Of a stretch of DNA of 42,974 bases, positions 6,431 to 28,295 are shown piece after piece. The stretch's first letter is position 1. Each line of letters opens with the position of its first letter. The stretch comes from an uncultured Roseburia sp. (GTDB lineage: Bacteria > Bacillota > Clostridia > Lachnospirales > Lachnospiraceae). The stretch lies in contig CALWHT010000054.1 of the NCBI GenBank assembly GCA_944380515.1, positions 1 to 42,974 on the forward strand. The letters run 5' to 3'. The notes beneath the pieces were generated by a model. It made no database searches and was not told the DNA's origin. It saw nothing but the letters and a program-made list of their open reading frames with translations. Made by a program: the position numbers and the translations under genes.

Positions 6431-8377
6431 TTATCCTGCCTGTGACGCTTCGAGCTCCGTTGACAATTGCTCCCACGTCTCATAACAGTCCTCAAGCTCC
6501 GCGCGGCAGTCCGCCTGTTTCGCTGCAAGTTCGCCGAGCTTCGCCGAATTTGTCGCGTTCTCCGGTTTTGCACATTCCTCGTCAATGGACGCGATTTCGT
6601 CCTCCAGTGCGGCAATCCGTTCCTCCGTCTTTTTTAAGCTGTTTTCCAGTTTGCGGATTCTGGCCTGCTCGGCCTTTTTCGCCTGCCAGTCGGCTTTTGA
6701 CGCCGCGGCACCCTCCTCCAAAGGAACGGATTCGCTTTGCGTTACCGGCTGCTTTGCGTAAAGCTCCGTCATCGTCTCGCGTTTTTCCAGATAATAATCG
6801 TAATTGCCGATATAATTGACAAGCCTCTGCCCGGTCAGATCCAAAATCCTCGTTGCCGTCTGATTGATAAAATAGCGGTCGTGCGATACAAACAGCACCG
6901 TGCCCGTATAGCGGTTGAGCGCGGACTCCAGAATTTCTTTTGAGGCAATATCCAGATGGTTGGTCGGCTCGTCCAGAATCAGGAAATTAGCGTCGGAAAG
7001 CATGAGCTTCGCCAGTGAAACACGGCCGCGCTCCCCTCCGCTTAAGTCGCCGACGCGCTTAAACACATCGTCGTTGGTAAATAAAAATGCCGCCAGCACA
7101 TTTCGGATTTTTGTATTGTTCAAATCCGGATAGGCATCCGAAATCTCCTCGAAAATCGTTTTTTCCATATGGAGAAGCTGATGCTCCTGGTCATAATAGC
7201 CGATGTGTACATTTGCGCCCAGCGTCACGCTGCCGGCATCCGCCTCCACCAGCCCGTTGATAATTTTTAAAATCGTCGTTTTCCCGGTGCCGTTGCTGCC
7301 GATTAACGCTACGCGCTCTCCCCGTTTGATGTCAAAGGAAAGCCCGGAAAACAGTGTAACCGGCTCATAGGATTTTGCAAGCTCCGAGACGGTCAGCACG
7401 TCGTTCCCGCTTAAGACATTCGGCTCCAGCTCTATTTTCATGTCCATTTTTTCCTCTGCGGGCTTTTCGATGCGCTCCACCTTTTCCAGCAGCTTTTCCC
7501 GGCTCTCCGCCCGCTTGATGGACTTTTCCCTGTTAAAGGATTTTAATTTGGCAATGACCTCTTCCTGGCGCTTGATTTCTCTCTGCTGATGGTAATACTG
7601 CTTTAGCATATCCTCCCGGATTTTTGCCTTTTTGCGCGCAAATTCCGTATAATTGCCCTGATAGACAAAGCCGCGGTGTCCGGAAATCTCAATGATTTTC
7701 GTAACCACACGGTCGAGAAAATAGCGGTCGTGCGCCACGATAATCACGGCTCCCTTATAGCCCCGCAAAAAGCCCTCAAGCCACTGAATCGACTCCATAT
7801 CCAGATGGTTGGTCGGCTCGTCCAAAAGCAGGATATCGGGCTTCGTGACGAGAAGCTTGCCGAGGGACACCCTTGTCTTTTGTCCGCCCGAAAGCTCATT
7901 CATTTTTTTGCCGAAATCTTCCTCCGAAAAACCGAGTCCCTTTAAAACGCCGGTGACCTCGCTGCGGTAGGCATAGCCGTCCAGCAGCTCGAACTCATGG
8001 CTGAGCCGGTGATAGGTATCAAGCAGCGCCTCAAGCTCCTTTCCAGCAAGGCCCTCCATGTCCGCCTCAAGCTTCCGCAGACGCGCCTCCATTTCCAGAA
8101 TATCCTTTCTGGAAAGGAGTACTTCGTCATAGATGGTATTATGCCCGGAAATATCCTGATACTGCGCGAGATACCCCACCGTTTTTTCCTTTGCGACAAT
8201 GACCTCCCCGCTGTCAGCGGGCTCCTGCCTCATAATAATTTTAAGCAGCGTAGACTTGCCGGCGCCGTTTGCGCCGACAATCGCTGCTTTTTCGTTTGCT
8301 TCCACATGGAAGCTTACATCCCTTAATATTTCATCCGTCCCGAAGGATTTCGAGATATTCTGACATGATAAAATCAT
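6431..8377 (-). CDS. ABC-F family ATPase (YdiF/Uup-like)
   Basis: 648-residue soluble protein with two ABC ATPase domains and no membrane segments, the layout of ABC-F translation factors. Walker A sites are GANGAGKST (about residue 35) and GSNGTGKTT; signatures are [15 protein letters not shown] and [15 protein letters not shown]; both are followed by [10 protein letters not shown] or [12 protein letters not shown] basic inter-domain linker (about 240-310) and a C-terminal coiled coil (about 560-645) match YdiF/Uup-type housekeeping members, which act on ribosomes or branched DNA. A resistance role is not indicated. The ATG overlaps the icd stop as ATGA, so translation is probably coupled to that metabolic gene, an unusual partner. 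Confidence 0.93.
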
Positions 8378-22504: not shown

Positions 22505-22573
22505 TTAATCCTCTGCTTCATCTGTGGGAATATCCCCAAACAGAACATGGATTTTCAAGTTCCTCTTATTCAT
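22505..22573 (-). CDS. 22-codon frame overlapping the antitoxin stop
   Basis: An ATG overlapping the end of the antitoxin-like gene opens a 22-residue frame, MNKRNLKIHVLFGDIPTDEA plus two residues, ending 25 bp before the terminator. It occupies the place where a toxin gene would be expected. It has no strong ribosome site of its own and could be a remnant, a coupled micropeptide or chance. Confidence 0.25.
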   Translation of the reverse strand: MNKRNLKIHVLFGDIPTDEAED

Positions 22574-22820
22574 TGACAATCCCGAGTTGCTTCTCCACAG
22601 CTTCCAATGACAGCCAGCCTTTCTCCTCGCCAGATTTCCGACCCTTTGCAAGTTCATTCATCAGCCGGAGTGCCGCCTGTGTTTTTTCAAAGTCCTGCAT
22701 ATCCAGAATCGCATATCTGCCCCGTCCATTCTTTGTCAGAAAAACCGGAGCACCTACTGCTACATCATGCAATACCTCGTTATAATTGCGCAAATCAGAA
22801 ACAGGTTTGATATTTGGCAT
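22566..22820 (-). CDS. Phd/YefM-type antitoxin
   Basis: 84-residue protein of the prevent-host-death/YefM superfamily: MPNIKPVSDLRNYNEVLHDV is the N-terminal DNA-binding fold, then GAPVFLTKNGRGRYAILDMQ, the family's hallmark, then a C-terminal helical toxin-binding region. The open frame extends 43 codons upstream, but the start was placed where AAGGAG lies nine bases before the ATG. Such proteins normally precede a RelE, YoeB, Doc or Fic-type toxin; here only a 22-codon frame and a terminator follow, so the toxin is missing or elsewhere. It starts 28 bp after the broken surface-protein gene. Confidence 0.85.
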   Translation of the reverse strand: MPNIKPVSDLRNYNEVLHDVAVGAPVFLTKNGRGRYAILDMQDFEKTQAALRLMNELAKGRKSGEEKGWLSLEAVEKQLGIVNE

Positions 22821-22848: not shown

Positions 22849-24186
22849 CTATTTTTTTGTGGTAATTTTCTTTGCCTTCGACCAATCCGAATAGATTCTG
22901 GTCGATTTTTTATTGATCCTGACCGTCTTATAAGTACGGACGCGCACATAATATTTTTTCTTCGCTTTCAGTCCCGTAATTTTCTTTGAAGTCGTTCCGT
23001 TTTTTGCGATCCGCACCGTATGCGTTGTTTTTTTCGTAAACTTACTGCTCGTGGAATACTGCACTTCATATCCGGTTGTCTGTTTCTTTTGCTTCTTCCA
23101 TTTCACCGTTATATTTTTCCCGGAAGAAGACAGCTTCGTTACACTTGTGCTTTTCGGCTTAACGGTAAAGGTCTTTTTGACGGTTCCGCTGTATTTTCCC
23201 TTCAGCTTAATTGTCACCGTATACTTGCCGACATTTTTTCTGCTTTTCGGGTAGATGACCGTGTAATCTGTCCCTTTCTTCAGCTTCCTGCCCTTTGCGT
23301 CCGTAACGGTCACGCCCGGCGTCCGGTTCTTTCCGTTATAGGTGAGGGCTGTCGCAGAAAGCGCAGTCTTTTTTGCCGCAGGGATTGTCTCTGTTTTGGA
23401 CGCCCCGCAGACGGAACAGGTCTGTTTTACTTTCCCGCTTTTTGTCGTTGTCGCCTTTTTTATTACCTTCGTATCCTGATAATTGTGGCCTGTGGCGGGA
23501 ATGTCCGTCACATCCGCCGACGCGCCGCAAACCATACAGTGGCGCGACTTGCTGCCCGCCTGCGTACAGGTCGGCTGCCGGTCTGTCGTCCACTCGGACG
23601 TATAGGTGTGGCCCACCGCAGGAATCGCCTCCGTATAGCTGTCGCCGCAAACCGTACAGTGGCGCGACTTGCTGCCCGCCTGCGTACAAGTCGGCTGCCG
23701 GTCTGTCGTCCACTCGGACGTATAGGCATGGCCCGCCGCCGGAATCGCCTCCGTATAGCTGTCACCGCAGATACCGCAGCGCAGCGTGCGTTCTCCCGCC
23801 TGTGTGCAGGTCGGCTGTCTGGTGACTGTCTCCGTGTATTGATGGACGCACACCACCTGATAGGCCGCCTGGACTATACCCGTATAATTTCCGATACCGG
23901 AGACGGTCAGCGTATAGCTGCCGGGCGCTGTCACCAAAAAGCCCCCGGTCAGCTGATAGTCGCGCCCTTCCACTAAGGTTCTGCCGTCCAGTGTCACCTG
24001 CGGCAGGATTGTCTGCGTCCCGCCCGTATAGCTGACGGTCGGAACCGTGACGGAAGCGCCCGCGATGTCGCGTTTCGCCCCGCCGACCACAAAGACAGCA
24101 GCGCCCTCATACGTCTCACGCGGCTCATAGGAAACCGTAAGCCGCCCGGAGGCATCCGCCGCCGCCTGCGCGACATACAAAAGATT
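22849..24186 (-). pseudogene. C-terminal part of the interrupted RCC1 surface protein
   Basis: About 445 codons that continue in the same reading frame as the 1092-residue protein after its TAG stop (24187-24189). The first codons after the stop read NLLYVAQAAADASGRL. Domains in order: a YDG-like bacterial domain (VSYTGGTQTILPQVTLDG onwards), three and a half zinc-ribbon-looking repeats with CxxC pairs (RQPTCTQAGSKSRHCTVCG, with two near-identical 40-residue copies), a second YDG-like domain (LTYNGKNRTPGVTVTD) and a C-terminal fibronectin type III domain ending SKAKKITTKK. There is no ribosome site or good start codon at its beginning (only TTG at 24180), so it is unlikely to be made separately. 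It is expressed only if the TAG is read through. Confidence 0.82.
23530..23770 (-). repeat. 120-bp tandem repeats in the surface-protein tail
   Basis: Two almost identical 120-bp units encode the 40-residue CxxC-containing module (PTCTQAGSKSRHC and YTSEWTTDRQ segments), with a more diverged copy on each side. The nucleotide identity is high enough for slippage or recombination. Confidence 0.75.
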
Positions 24187-27100
24187 CTACGGGGCGAGCA
24201 GCCGCTCCGCCGTCAGGGATTTTGCCACATAAAACTGATAGGTTCCCTCCGGCGCCAAATCGCGGAAGGATGCCTCCTGTACGTCTCCCGCGGTAGAGAC
24301 GCTGTCCGCTTTATTCACCGCGATTGGCTCCGCCTCCGCTTCCACGGACAGGACGGATGCTTTCGCGCCGTTGGGAAGAGCCACGCCACCGGGGAGAGCG
24401 ATTTTAGTCGGAGTGTGCCTGTCTGTCGTCGTTCCGTCTCCTAGATGACCATTATAATTCCGTCCCCACATATACAGGCTTCCGTCGCTTGTAATGGCTC
24501 CGCTGTGATCAACTCCCAGGCTGACCGACACCACGTTATCCAGCACCTTTACCGGCGTGTGCCTGTCTGTAGTTGTACCGTCTCCAAGCCGACCATAATT
24601 ACCTCCCCACATATACAGGTTTCCGTCTCCTGTGATCGCTCCGCTATGAACCTCTCCCAGGCTGACCGAGACCACGTTATCCAGCACCTTTACCGGCGTG
24701 TGCCTGTCTGTAGTTGTACCGTCTCCTAGCTGACCATTATAATTAAATCCCCACATATACAGGCTTCCGTCTCCCGTGATTGCTCCGCTGTGAACACTTC
24801 CCAGGCTGACCGACACCACATTATCCAGCACCTTTACCGGCGTGTGCCTGTCTGTCGTCGTCCCGTCTCCTAGATGACCATTATAATTCCGTCCCCACAT
24901 ATACAGGCTTCCGTCGCTTGTGATCGCTCCGCTGTGATCACCTCCCAGGCTGACCGAGACCACGTTATCCAGCACCTTTACCGGCGTGTGCCTGTCTGTA
25001 GTTGTACCGTCTCCTAGATGACCATCATAATTATCTCCCCACATATACAGGCTTCCGTCGCTTGTGATCGCTCCGCTGTACCAAATTCCCAGACTAAGCA
25101 TCTGCCTTTGCGTCACAGCCGTATCCGCGGAACCATCCGGCAGAACAGGTTCGATGGGCTCGATGGTGATAGCTCCGTCTTCGCCGCTCCCGCCGCTTTT
25201 TTTCAGGAGAATCCGTATCGTCTCCGACTTGCCCGCCACCAGAAGGCGGTAGGTTCCGGCCGGATAGCCTGCCTTTTCTGTCTTCAGGCGGTAGCTGCCG
25301 TTTGGCAGATAAAATTCCGCCTTTCCGTTCTCATCTGTCGTATACTTCCCGTCTATCACCGCTCCGGAAACGGGCTTCCCCGCCGTATCGGTTACGGCTG
25401 CCTGTATGCGGAAGCTGAGATAAGGGCAGGAGGAAAGCCCGAACTCATCGTGATCCACCGAATAATAAAAGTCGGCGACCTTTTCCTTCTCATCCGCTAT
25501 GCGGATGCGGAAGGTCAGGGATTCTTTGTTCAGCAGCTTTGCGGCCGCGTCCAGATTGACCCTGGCGTAAATATCACCGTCCACACAGCTGCTGCAGGTG
25601 TGGAGCACCTCTCCCGATTCGCTTCTGTGATAGTCAAGGACCGCGGTCACCTCAACGCCGACCTTCGCCGTAAGGCTGGCGGACGCAACCTTTTCCGTTA
25701 AAATCTTTACCCTTGGCTCCAGCGAAAAACCGATAAAGATACTTCCCTGTGATTTAAATTCCGTCTCAAGCGTCGGCATGGAGGTAAGATTTTCCATGCC
25801 GTTTTTGGTGGCACGGAAGCCCACGGCACCCTTTAAGGTTCCCTGCAGCGCTATGCTGGCATCCGCCTCCGCCACGATGCTCGGTGTCAGCTCCACGATC
25901 ACGCCGCAGAACATATAGCCGACCGTGACCAGCGGTACATCGATACTGCCGCTTCCGGAGACGGAAACGCCAAGCTTTGCGGAATAATCCAGCTTCAGCT
26001 CCACGTATTGCTGTGAAAATGAGAGATATAATTTTGCCGAACAGGTAAGCTTCATATCCAGACCGCCGGAAACCGTAAAGCTTCCCGCACCGGATTCCAC
26101 CTTCTTATCCAGCTTCATCCGGAAGGCTTTCTCCATACTGCCCCCGGCGTCCACCCCATAGGCTTTAAAGTCACTGTCCGCCACAGCGTCGACCAGCCCT
26201 TCATAGGTCACGCCCTCGCCGCAGGTAGATGGGTCGATGACCGCATTCCCCAGTCCCTCCTCGGCATCAATCTTCACATAGGAAAAGACATCCTCCAGCG
26301 CGGCGTCCGCCCCTGTAATCGTCACCGTCGTCCCGTCAACACTGATTTCGGCGATTTTAACAATCAACACCTGTCCTGTCTCATATTCGTAGGCAAAGGT
26401 ATCTCCCGGCTGCAGGGAGGTCATGCTGACATCCGCATCCGTAATCACATAGGTGTCCGCCGCTTCATCTATGGACGCAACCTCATTTTTTCCGGTACCG
26501 GACGGGATAAGGATCACATCATCATTGTAAACGGCAAAGTTGTTCGTAATATCGTCATCCAGATTCAACACCTTATCCGCGTCAAAATCCTCCGTCGTCT
26601 TAGACAAAAAGTCCTGCATTTCCTGCGTATACAGGGAGGATTCATAGGAGGTGCAGACAGGCCTTAAGGTGTCTGTCTCTACCAGAAACCCACGGATATA
26701 AAAGTATTGCGGCATCGAAGCCGTCTCAATATCCACTACCGCCTCCGTCTGTCCCCGCGATACCTCCACGGAGCCGGAAGCGAGCATTTTGATTCCGTCC
26801 TCCTCATAGACGCCGATGACAAGCGAAGCGTCCCGGGTCGTCTCAAAAGATACAAACGCCTCTGTCCCGGTCATTTCCACCGAAAAGATATTGCATCCGT
26901 TATTTTCCAGCTGCTCCGCGGCAAGCTGCGAAAATTCCTCCGCGAAAAGCGTGCCGGCGGAGTTTGCCCCCTTAACGGAAAGCTCCGGCTTCTCCACAGA
27001 GCTTTCCGGTTCCTCTGTAGCTTCGGTTTCCTCCACAGAGCTTTCCGGCTCCTCTGTGGCTTCGGTTTCCTCCACGGTGCTCTCCCCGGCGCTCTCGCTC

Positions 27101-27465
27101 TCCGTTTCTTCGTTCTCTGTTACTTCGCTCTCTGTTTCTTTACTCTCCGACGGAAGCTCTGTCGCCTGCTCCGTCTCCTCGCTTTCCGCGGGCTTCTGTT
27201 CTGCCGGAGCTTCTGTTGTCTCACCCTCCCCGGCAACATCCTCTGTAGCTTCTGTTTCTTCCACGGTACTTTCCCCGGCGCTCTCGCTCTCCGTTTCTTC
27301 GCTCTCCGTCACTTCGCTCTCCGACGGAAGCTCTGTCGTCTGCTCCGTCGTTTCTTCCGATAGCGTCATTTCCGTGTTCTGCGCGGCGCTCACATTGCCC
27401 GGCAATGAAAATCCTGATATTGTCACCGTCAGGGCGAGCAAGGCCGCCAATACTCTTTTGTTCAT
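24187..27465 (-). CDS. large secreted RCC1-repeat protein, cut short by in-frame TAG
   Basis: 1092-residue exported protein. A signal peptide (about 1-28, LAALLALTVTISGFSLPG) is followed by a Glu/Thr/Ser-rich low-complexity stalk (about 30-165) built from repeats such as ESTVEETEATE. A large beta-rich region follows (about 170-690). Next are a carboxypeptidase-regulatory-like domain (about 700-765, SGAVIDGKYTTDENGKAEF) and five RCC1 repeats of 47-48 residues (about 780-1020, each with SLYMWG and GDGTTTDRHTP). The frame stops at TAG after LTAERLLAP, while the same frame continues for 445 more codons. GGAGG precedes the ATG by eight bases. No sortase or membrane anchor is present. It is 24 bp downstream of the HEPN gene. 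Likely an adhesin-like or ligand-binding surface protein. Confidence 0.82.
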   Translation of the reverse strand: MNKRVLAALLALTVTISGFSLPGNVSAAQNTEMTLSEETTEQTTELPSESEVTESEETESESAGESTVEETEATEDVAGEGETTEAPAEQKPAESEETEQATELPSESKETESEVTENEETESESAGESTVEETEATEEPESSVEETEATEEPESSVEKPELSVKGANSAGTLFAEEFSQLAAEQLENNGCNIFSVEMTGTEAFVSFETTRDASLVIGVYEEDGIKMLASGSVEVSRGQTEAVVDIETASMPQYFYIRGFLVETDTLRPVCTSYESSLYTQEMQDFLSKTTEDFDADKVLNLDDDITNNFAVYNDDVILIPSGTGKNEVASIDEAADTYVITDADVSMTSLQPGDTFAYEYETGQVLIVKIAEISVDGTTVTITGADAALEDVFSYVKIDAEEGLGNAVIDPSTCGEGVTYEGLVDAVADSDFKAYGVDAGGSMEKAFRMKLDKKVESGAGSFTVSGGLDMKLTCSAKLYLSFSQQYVELKLDYSAKLGVSVSGSGSIDVPLVTVGYMFCGVIVELTPSIVAEADASIALQGTLKGAVGFRATKNGMENLTSMPTLETEFKSQGSIFIGFSLEPRVKILTEKVASASLTAKVGVEVTAVLDYHRSESGEVLHTCSSCVDGDIYARVNLDAAAKLLNKESLTFRIRIADEKEKVADFYYSVDHDEFGLSSCPYLSFRIQAAVTDTAGKPVSGAVIDGKYTTDENGKAEFYLPNGSYRLKTEKAGYPAGTYRLLVAGKSETIRILLKKSGGSGEDGAITIEPIEPVLPDGSADTAVTQRQMLSLGIWYSGAITSDGSLYMWGDNYDGHLGDGTTTDRHTPVKVLDNVVSVSLGGDHSGAITSDGSLYMWGRNYNGHLGDGTTTDRHTPVKVLDNVVSVSLGSVHSGAITGDGSLYMWGFNYNGQLGDGTTTDRHTPVKVLDNVVSVSLGEVHSGAITGDGNLYMWGGNYGRLGDGTTTDRHTPVKVLDNVVSVSLGVDHSGAITSDGSLYMWGRNYNGHLGDGTTTDRHTPTKIALPGGVALPNGAKASVLSVEAEAEPIAVNKADSVSTAGDVQEASFRDLAPEGTYQFYVAKSLTAERLLAP
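24410..25100 (-). repeat. five 144-bp tandem repeats encoding RCC1 units
   Basis: Five units (four of 144 bp, one of 141 bp) are nearly identical at nucleotide level, for example the recurring CCCACATATACAGG block about every 144 bp (near 24465, 24608, 24751, 24894, 25038). Differences cluster at a few codons that set the blade-loop residues (DNYDGH, RNYNGH, FNYNGQ, GNYGR). Confidence 0.85.
26995..27350 (-). repeat. Glu/Thr/Ser-rich coding repeats
   Basis: Low-complexity coding repeats in the stalk of the RCC1 protein. A 15-codon unit occurs twice in tandem (ETEATEEPESSVE) and a longer unit (TESEETESESAGESTVEE type) occurs twice about 60 codons apart. Such stalks usually hold a domain away from the cell wall. 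Confidence 0.7.
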
Positions 27466-27489
27466 AACTCATACCTCCACATCATTTGT

Positions 27490-27861
27490 CTATTTCAAAA
27501 AAGCAACAATCCTCCGTTCAAGCTCCCGATAAATATTGACAGCGTTCTCAAGCTGTTTTGCAGTCGCAAAAAAGGATTCTTTATAGCGGCTGCTTGCTTC
27601 CCAGTCCGTAATCGTACCCGCCATCAGCTCCAATAATTCCAACTCCTCCCAGCCGGATTTTACATAGCAGTCATATAGAGGAGTAATCGCGTGTGTATAC
27701 GGATAACGCTCTCCCCGCAGTTCAATGGAACATTTCAGCAGTTTTTCAATCGCCTGTTGGATATGATAACAACAAATATCCAAATAAAGCTCATCATTTA
27801 CTTTTTGCATAGTAAGGACAACATCATAATCCTTTCTTGCCTTTTCCAACAACAGACACAT
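27490..27861 (-). CDS. HEPN-domain protein (HepT-like)
   Basis: 123-residue HEPN protein. The family core YHIQQAIEKLLKCSIELRGE is followed by RYPYTH, an Arg52-x4-His57 pattern like the RNase motif of HEPN toxins. The tyrosine that follows the His in classic HepT (RX4HXY) is not there; the sequence reads HAI. ATG at 27861 overlaps the partner's TAA as TAATG, with AAGGAG eight bases upstream, so translation is coupled to the nucleotidyltransferase. HEPN/MNT pairs form type VII toxin-antitoxin systems in which MNT AMPylates HEPN. Whether this HEPN is an active RNase or a non-toxic nucleotide-binding relative cannot be decided from sequence. Confidence 0.87.
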   Translation of the reverse strand: MCLLLEKARKDYDVVLTMQKVNDELYLDICCYHIQQAIEKLLKCSIELRGERYPYTHAITPLYDCYVKSGWEELELLELMAGTITDWEASSRYKESFFATAKQLENAVNIYRELERRIVAFLK

Positions 27862-28253
27862 TATCTCATCTCCTTGATACAAAAACCATTCGTGTCAATT
27901 TCCTTTTTTATTCTGTCATCTGCGCTTAAATCATTATAATAAATAACATCACAGTCAACGCCTGTACTGTTTAAAATTATTTTTTGGATTTCATGGAAAA
28001 ATTCCAAATCATATTCCTTTGTCCGAATACAGATATCAAGGTCGCTTGTCACATTGCACCTCATCGTCAGCGCACTTCCGAATATAATGACCGATATATT
28101 ATAAGTCGCGAGCGCATCCATCACCGCTTTTACTTCCATCTGCATCAACGGATAGATATTCCGGTAAACAGGATCAAGCGCGTCATTGACTAGCGGAAAC
28201 TTCTTTAAATCGCGCAGCTGCAGTATTTCTTCCCAGGTGGTTTCTTCCCTCAT
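27861..28253 (-). CDS. minimal nucleotidyltransferase (MntA-like)
   Basis: 130-residue protein with the pol-beta-type minimal nucleotidyltransferase fold. The catalytic signature GSX10DXD is complete: Gly59-Ser60 (IIFGSALTM) and Asp71-x-Asp73 (SDLDICI), with a third acidic residue in the following VDCDVIYY strand. An N-terminal extension of about 45 residues precedes the fold. GAGGG lies about ten bases before the ATG; a TTG one codon earlier is also open. First gene of the MNT-HEPN pair with its own promoter at 28296-28324. By analogy it AMPylates the HEPN partner, but target and toxicity are inferred. Confidence 0.87.
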   Translation of the reverse strand: MREETTWEEILQLRDLKKFPLVNDALDPVYRNIYPLMQMEVKAVMDALATYNISVIIFGSALTMRCNVTSDLDICIRTKEYDLEFFHEIQKIILNSTGVDCDVIYYNDLSADDRIKKEIDTNGFCIKEMR

Positions 28254-28295
28254 CAAGCTTTTCCCTCACCTTCCGGCACAGTCATCCATAGTTTC

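What the first reader, a model, noticed from the sequence alone, without database searches (positions are those of the whole stretch)
24187..24189. Single in-frame TAG splits a 1.5-kilo-residue RCC1 surface protein
The 1092-codon gene ends with TAG, and the identical reading frame continues for 445 codons of clearly related domains (YDG-like, CxxC repeats, Fn3) with no ribosome site of their own. One G-to-T change from GAG would create the stop. Options: a recent nonsense mutation, a deliberate or leaky readthrough that yields two protein sizes, suppressor tRNA use, or a base error. The tail holds the putative distal binding domains, so the outcome changes the protein's reach.
Basis: seen in the sequence. 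Interest (0 to 1): 0.72.

Follow-up and report, generated by a model that had tools for sequence, protein, structure and literature searches.

The report
Recent nonsense mutation in surface protein
A gut bacterium's large repeat-bearing surface protein is cut short by a single stop codon that its relatives lack, most likely a recent ordinary mutation (or a base-calling error) and not a special decoding trick.

Summary
On the minus strand a 1092-codon gene (27465 to 24190) ends in TAG at 24189-24187, and the same frame stays open for 445 more codons to a second TAG. The stop falls inside a conserved domain. In 24 of 24 aligned relative rows (23 distinct) a sense codon sits there. In 22 of 40 relative loci the head and this domain share one uninterrupted frame. 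The tail shows no decay: codon positions diverge as in the N-terminal domain and conserved residues are kept. So the stop is very young, or a base error, or the tail is still made. Nothing found supports amber recoding: no CUA anticodon among the 45 tRNA genes found (set incomplete), RF1 present, no pyrrolysyl-tRNA synthetase over cut-off, and TAG used as a normal terminator, also at the end of the tail. Best reading: a recent nonsense allele, seen in this genome only, giving a truncated acidic protein without its basic Fn3 end, with at most low background readthrough. Reads, same-species strains and proteomics were not available, so base error and functional readthrough stay open.

The parts
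24190..27465 (-). Head ORF, 1092 codons: export-signal-like N-terminus, acidic Ser/Thr/Glu-rich stretch, conserved N-terminal domain (about residues 165-690), five RCC1 repeats, first part of the domain that the stop interrupts; predicted pI 4.3
   Evidence: signal-like N-terminus and S/T/E-rich stretch read by eye
24187..24189 (-). In-frame TAG, preceded by Ala-Pro codons and followed by A, inside a conserved domain; a sense codon in 24 of 24 aligned relative rows (23 distinct)
22852..24186 (-). Tail, 445 open codons: rest of the interrupted domain, four CxxC motifs 40 residues apart, a stretch without a Pfam name, fn3 domain; predicted pI 9.9
22849..22851 (-). TAG that ends the tail, so amber is also the terminator of the long frame
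27466..27490 (-). Upstream of the start: GGAGG 8 nt before the ATG

Best explanation
The TAG is a recent nonsense substitution, seen in this genome only, in a gene whose relatives carry head and interrupted domain in one frame. Inferred, not shown: RF1 ends translation at the TAG and releases a 116-kDa acidic, RCC1-bearing protein that lacks the second half of one domain, the CxxC repeats and the strongly basic fn3 end. If the basic end holds the protein to the anionic wall (an inference from charge alone), the short form would be shed or less well anchored. A trace of full-length protein from ordinary background UAG readthrough is possible. The downstream part is too young a relic to have decayed.
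For: In 22 of 40 relative loci the N-terminal domain and the interrupted domain share one frame; in 1 (L138) they lie in different frames; in 17 no domain match was found in the head's frame, 5 of them running off the contig end. By eye 19 of these 22 have a signal-like N-terminus, and two of them (L134, L136) also match the fn3 end of the tail in the same frame. The same-genus copy in G052 is open over head, RCC1 part, domain and tail, 1508 codons. At the aligned column 24 of 24 rows (23 distinct) have sense codons. Of 194 genomes searched with the stretch spanning the TAG, 7 matched and only the window's own carries a stop. Tail versus G052 mismatches at codon positions 1/2/3 are 0.282/0.255/0.608, N-terminal domain 0.331/0.253/0.607. 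In leave-one-out tests the window's tail (from tail codon 191 on) deviates at 4 of 62 conserved columns, the lowest of 12 sequences (others 5-20), and at 1 of 12 after the stop within the domain. RF1 present; TAG ends 7 of 25 long window ORFs picked; no CUA anticodon in 45 tRNA genes found.
Against: The tail is so well kept that a base error or a still-translated tail fits equally well. No reads, second strain or expression data were available. The closest copy, G052, is not a clean yardstick: no start or export signal is visible before its 1508-codon frame, so it may be 5'-truncated. The 72 codons just before the TAG show a weaker third-position excess (0.417/0.292/0.431) than the rest, and 32 aligned codons in the repeat region likewise (0.406/0.250/0.469). 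The Pro before the stop and the +4 A are not those of the strongest terminators, so some leakiness is possible.
Confidence: 0.68

Rival explanations
1. Base or assembly error: the organism has a sense codon and the protein is full length.
For: Single substitution distance, no decay of the tail, sense codon in every aligned relative row, draft assembly of 66 contigs.
Against: The stretch is not a long homopolymer or simple repeat. General knowledge, not tested: substitution errors in assembled consensus are rarer than real nonsense alleles.
Confidence: 0.18
2. Functional leaky readthrough: the stop sets a ratio of a short and a long form, and selection keeps the tail.
For: Tail kept under coding constraint. 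Pro before the stop and A after it are not the strongest termination context (passages of PMC7246954, and PMC5289835; section 10 of PMC11126739). Belinky et al. find in-frame stops in bacterial genes with dN/dS under 1 (PMC7918605).
Against: Stop private to this genome among those compared: 24 of 24 relative rows sense. No significant downstream RNA structure (15 of 200 shuffles fold at least as well). It cuts through a conserved domain. PMC11126739 gives mean TAG readthrough values of 0.49, 0.80, 0.03 and 0.01 (per cent of wild-type fluorescence) at 18, 25, 37 and 42 C in E. coli in rich medium. PMC7918605 itself assumes that the vast majority of such cases have no functional recoding and are short-lived.
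Confidence: 0.1
3. Amber suppressor tRNA or pyrrolysine insertion decodes the TAG.
For: Two other genomes of the genus (G047, G056) have a single clean TAG inside a related fn3 domain.
Against: The 45 tRNA genes found were all read: no CUA anticodon. PylS profile matches at 33.8 bits or less against a cut-off of 178.15, also not over it in G047 and G056. RF1 over cut-off. The tail itself and 7 of 25 long window ORFs end in TAG. Internal stops of relatives are also TGA and TAA. Caveat: the tRNA set found lacks Ile-GAT, Ala-TGC, Arg-ACG and Glu-TTC, so some tRNA genes are missing from the assembly or the search.
Confidence: 0.01
4. The tail is a separate gene translated from its own start.
For: A GTG at 23616 has GGAGG 11 nt upstream.
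Against: It would start mid-repeat, drop the rest of the interrupted domain and lack an export signal (by eye); the GGAGG lies in a coding motif (Thr-Glu-Ala-Ile-Pro) that occurs twice in the tail; relatives have head and domain in one frame.
Confidence: 0.03

Closest known systems
In-frame nonsense codons in bacterial protein-coding genes (Belinky et al. 2021, PMC7918605; parts 1-2 of 6, abstract included, and passages read)
   Same: Single in-frame stop, coding constraint kept downstream, likely short-lived
   Different: Their large-scale set required the same stop in two or more species; here the stop is seen in one genome only
RCC1-repeat multidomain exported proteins of Lachnospiraceae, Ruminococcus and other Clostridia records
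   Same: Same N-terminal domain, in 22 of 40 loci the same interrupted domain in frame; RCC1 repeats and fn3 end in the same-genus G052 copy
   Different: Relatives have a sense codon at this position; number of CxxC repeats differs
Programmed UAG readthrough genes and pyrrolysine or suppressor decoding (recalled from general knowledge)
   Same: Long open frame after a UAG
   Different: Stop not conserved, no significant downstream structure, no CUA tRNA or PylS over cut-off found

Membership tests
Recent nonsense allele (pseudogene-type) | Homologues have a sense codon at the position | tested here: met
   24 of 24 aligned rows, 23 distinct
Recent nonsense allele (pseudogene-type) | Stop really present in the organism's DNA | not testable with these tools
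   no reads or second strain available
Recent nonsense allele (pseudogene-type) | Recent: no further lesions downstream | tested here: met
   445 open codons, codon-position pattern and conserved columns kept
Programmed stop-codon readthrough | Stop conserved between species with the downstream frame | tested here: not met
   sense codons in 24 of 24 relative rows; of 7 genomes matching the spanning stretch only the window's own has the stop
Programmed stop-codon readthrough | Stimulatory downstream RNA structure or context | tested here: inconclusive
   fold z-score -1.54, 15 of 200 shuffles at least as stable
Programmed stop-codon readthrough | Extended protein detected | not testable with these tools
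   no proteomic data
Amber suppressor or pyrrolysine decoding | tRNA with CUA anticodon | tested here: not met
   45 tRNA genes found, none CUA; set incomplete
Amber suppressor or pyrrolysine decoding | Pyrrolysyl-tRNA synthetase | tested here: not met
   best 33.8 bits against a cut-off of 178.15
RCC1-repeat protein | RCC1 repeats over Pfam cut-off | tested here: met
   five repeats at 39.7-49.4 bits, cut-off 21.7

The most novel reading that the evidence does not exclude
The amber codon is a functional leaky stop: the cell makes mostly a short, loosely held acidic RCC1 protein and a little full-length form with the basic fn3 end, and the single ambers inside fn3 ends of related proteins in two sister species (G047, G056) are independent cases of the same bet-hedging.
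Probability: 0.05. Interest if true: 0.6.

Novelty: new member of a known kind. Interest (0 to 1): 0.15.

Why it matters
As an ordinary nonsense allele it mainly warns annotators: a gene caller would see a 1092-aa protein plus an orphan fn3 tail that are halves of one gene. If readthrough were shown, it would be a natural amber switch that alters the far end of a commensal surface protein.

Tried and rejected
Structure prediction of the interrupted domain and of the N-terminal domain could not be run (tool switched off). A viral-contig scan with the tail found no relative. NCBIfam gave no family over cut-off for the head and none at all for the tail. I considered amber-specific interruption across the genus: of 119 fn3-end matches (in 30 of 62 genus genomes), 5 have an internal stop, 3 TAG and 2 TGA. 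On inspection two TAG cases (G047:C130, G056:C16) are clean single stops and the other three lie in decayed stretches with further stops. In 397 family genomes (106 with a match), 4 of the 150 rows listed (the tool's list is cut off) have one: 1 TAG, 1 TAA, 2 TGA; these four were not inspected. No amber preference is shown. A match flagged '1 TAG' (G005) turned out to be the ordinary end of that gene. A dS-based test was not usable because dS is saturated or very high in several segments. The search for RCC1 surface proteins of Lachnospiraceae (at least two of three terms; 529 papers, 10 listed) showed no paper on this family among those listed; a search for premature stops in surface proteins of gut strains (91 papers, 10 listed) showed nothing specific. 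Listings only in both. On rechecking I withdrew the claim that the G052 copy is complete: no start or export signal is visible before its open frame.

Full report
What is there. The window is the whole contig C54 of a 3.07-Mb draft genome in 66 contigs. The gene lies on the minus strand. It starts at ATG 27465, with GGAGG 8 nt upstream, runs 1092 codons, and stops at TAG 24189-24187. The same frame then runs 445 codons to TAG 22851-22849. The head has five RCC1 repeats and the tail an fn3 domain and four CxxC motifs. The open tail is far from chance: about 4e-9 at its base composition, while the other five frames hold 2 to 21 stops. GC3 and codon preference in the tail (0.652; 0.74) are close to those of the head (0.627; 0.71), and its other five frames score 0.48-0.62.

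Relatives. A search of 98 related genomes (the window's own included) with the tail found matches in 54. The best match outside the window's genome was in a same-genus genome, G052. Its copy is one open frame of 1508 codons with head, RCC1 part, the interrupted domain and the fn3 end in the same order. It is not a perfect yardstick: no start codon or export signal is visible at the front of that frame (first in-frame ATG at codon 70), so it may be 5'-truncated. A search with the N-terminal domain found it in 11 of 397 family genomes, the window's own included, with no stop inside any of the 13 matches. A scan of named genomes gave 38 loci, from records titled Lachnospiraceae, Ruminococcus and others.

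One frame or two. Of 40 loci examined (L081, L088, L116-L153), 22 have the N-terminal domain and the interrupted domain in one frame. One (L138) has them in different frames, as after a frameshift. In 17 the domain was not found in the head's frame, and in 5 of these 17 the frame runs off the contig. By eye 19 of the 22 have a signal-like N-terminus; L081 (G052), L128 (contig end) and L133 do not show one. L134 and L136 have signal, head, domain and a match to the fn3 end in one frame.

The stop position. In an alignment of 24 relative rows (domain matches at E below 1e-4; two rows are the same stretch held in two loci, so 23 distinct), the column of the TAG is always a sense codon: D 11, E 5, A 3, G 3, N 2. 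In 22 of the 24 rows the codon begins with G. The two residues right after the TAG (Asn-Leu) are among the seven invariant or nearly invariant columns of the 23-row domain alignment. The TAG thus sits inside a domain and not between domains.

Age of the stop. Compared with G052, the tail (365 of 445 codons aligned) differs at codon positions 1/2/3 by 0.282/0.255/0.608, the N-terminal domain by 0.331/0.253/0.607. This is the pattern of coding constraint on both sides. Two short segments show it less: the 72 codons just before the TAG (0.417/0.292/0.431) and 32 aligned codons in the repeat region (0.406/0.250/0.469). dS is saturated or very high in several segments, so no ratio is quoted. Leave-one-out counts at conserved columns (tail codon 191 onward, 11 relatives) give the window's tail 4 of 62 deviations, the fewest of 12 sequences, and 1 of 12 after the stop within the domain, where relatives have 0 to 5. 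There is no further stop in the tail. The lesion is very young, or a base error, or the tail is still translated.

Decoding. The 45 tRNA genes found by Rfam were all read by ARAGORN: none has a CUA anticodon. The set is incomplete, with no Ile-GAT, Ala-TGC, Arg-ACG or Glu-TTC. RF1 is present (536.7 bits, cut-off 423.25). PylS matches at most at 33.8 bits against 178.15, as 12 of the 14 control genomes also match below cut-off. TAG ends 7 of 25 long window ORFs that I picked and the tail itself. So UAG very probably works as a stop here. The cell also has tmRNA.

Readthrough. The TAG is preceded by an Ala-Pro pair and followed by A. C-terminal proline can stall termination and lead to SsrA tagging in E. 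coli (Hayes et al. 2002, as cited in passages of PMC7246954; that paper's own reporter saw no change in expression with proline). In E. coli reporters T after the stop favours termination and G readthrough (PMC11126739, section 10 read); mean TAG values were 0.49, 0.80, 0.03 and 0.01 per cent at 18, 25, 37 and 42 C in rich medium (passage). The downstream RNA folds little better than shuffles (z -1.54, 15 of 200), and PMC11126739 found no link of readthrough with folding. Low background readthrough is likely; a designed one is not indicated.

Is it an amber phenomenon of the genus? Of 119 fn3-end matches in 62 genus genomes 5 have internal stops (3 TAG, 2 TGA). Two of the TAG cases are clean single stops, the other three lie in stretches with further stops. 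Of the 150 rows listed for 397 family genomes 4 have internal stops (1 TAG, 1 TAA, 2 TGA, not inspected). These large surface proteins seem to be broken now and then by all three stops. With the window the clean cases inspected in the genus are three of three TAG, too few to mean much; this is the main observation in favour of the bolder reading.

How it most likely works. The short product is acidic (predicted pI 4.3, 116 kDa). The lost part is basic (pI 9.9; its last 175 residues hold 50 K+R against 4 D+E). A basic end could hold an exported protein to the anionic wall; that is an inference from charge. Truncation would then release it or weaken its hold. The half domain before the stop is probably misfolded; no structure could be predicted.

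Comparison. Belinky et al. (PMC7918605; parts 1-2 of 6 and passages read) describe in-frame stops in bacterial genes as widespread, with purifying selection downstream, mostly short-lived on the scale of population polymorphism. This case fits that description, except that here the stop is known from a single genome. Hence an ordinary member of a known kind, with base error (0.18) and functional readthrough (0.10) not excluded.

Noticed in passing
L083 (G047:C130) 779-781, + strand; L084 (G056:C16), minus-strand match 7937-8215 of the contig: Two sister species each carry one clean in-frame TAG inside the fn3 end of a related surface protein, with the frame open to the next stop.
   Followed up: partly
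L138, 7724-9800 and 9766 onward, + strand: A relative of the head gene whose N-terminal part and interrupted-domain part lie in different frames, as after a frameshift or assembly error.
   Followed up: partly
L081, minus strand, around 6639: The G052 copy's open frame has no visible start or export signal at its front, so this same-genus copy may be 5'-truncated.
   Followed up: partly
window 23409-23778, minus strand: CxxC motifs spaced exactly 40 codons apart; the G052 copy lacks about 80 codons here, so repeat number differs between species.
   Followed up: partly
window 24382-25059, minus strand: Five RCC1 repeats very similar to each other in protein sequence (by eye), suggesting recent duplication or homogenisation.
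   Followed up: no
window 23616, minus strand: In-frame GTG with GGAGG 11 nt upstream inside the tail, made by a repeated coding motif.
   Followed up: partly
window 27490-28256, minus strand: HEPN gene (27490-27882) and nucleotidyltransferase gene (27861-28256) next to each other just upstream of the surface protein; such pairs are known as toxin-antitoxin-like modules (recalled).
   Followed up: no
window 22566-22820, minus strand: Phd/YefM-antitoxin-like gene just downstream of the tail (27.2 bits, just under the Pfam cut-off of 29.8).
   Followed up: no
own genome G000: tRNA genes found lack Ile-GAT, Ala-TGC, Arg-ACG and Glu-TTC, so the draft assembly or the search misses some tRNA genes.
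   Followed up: no
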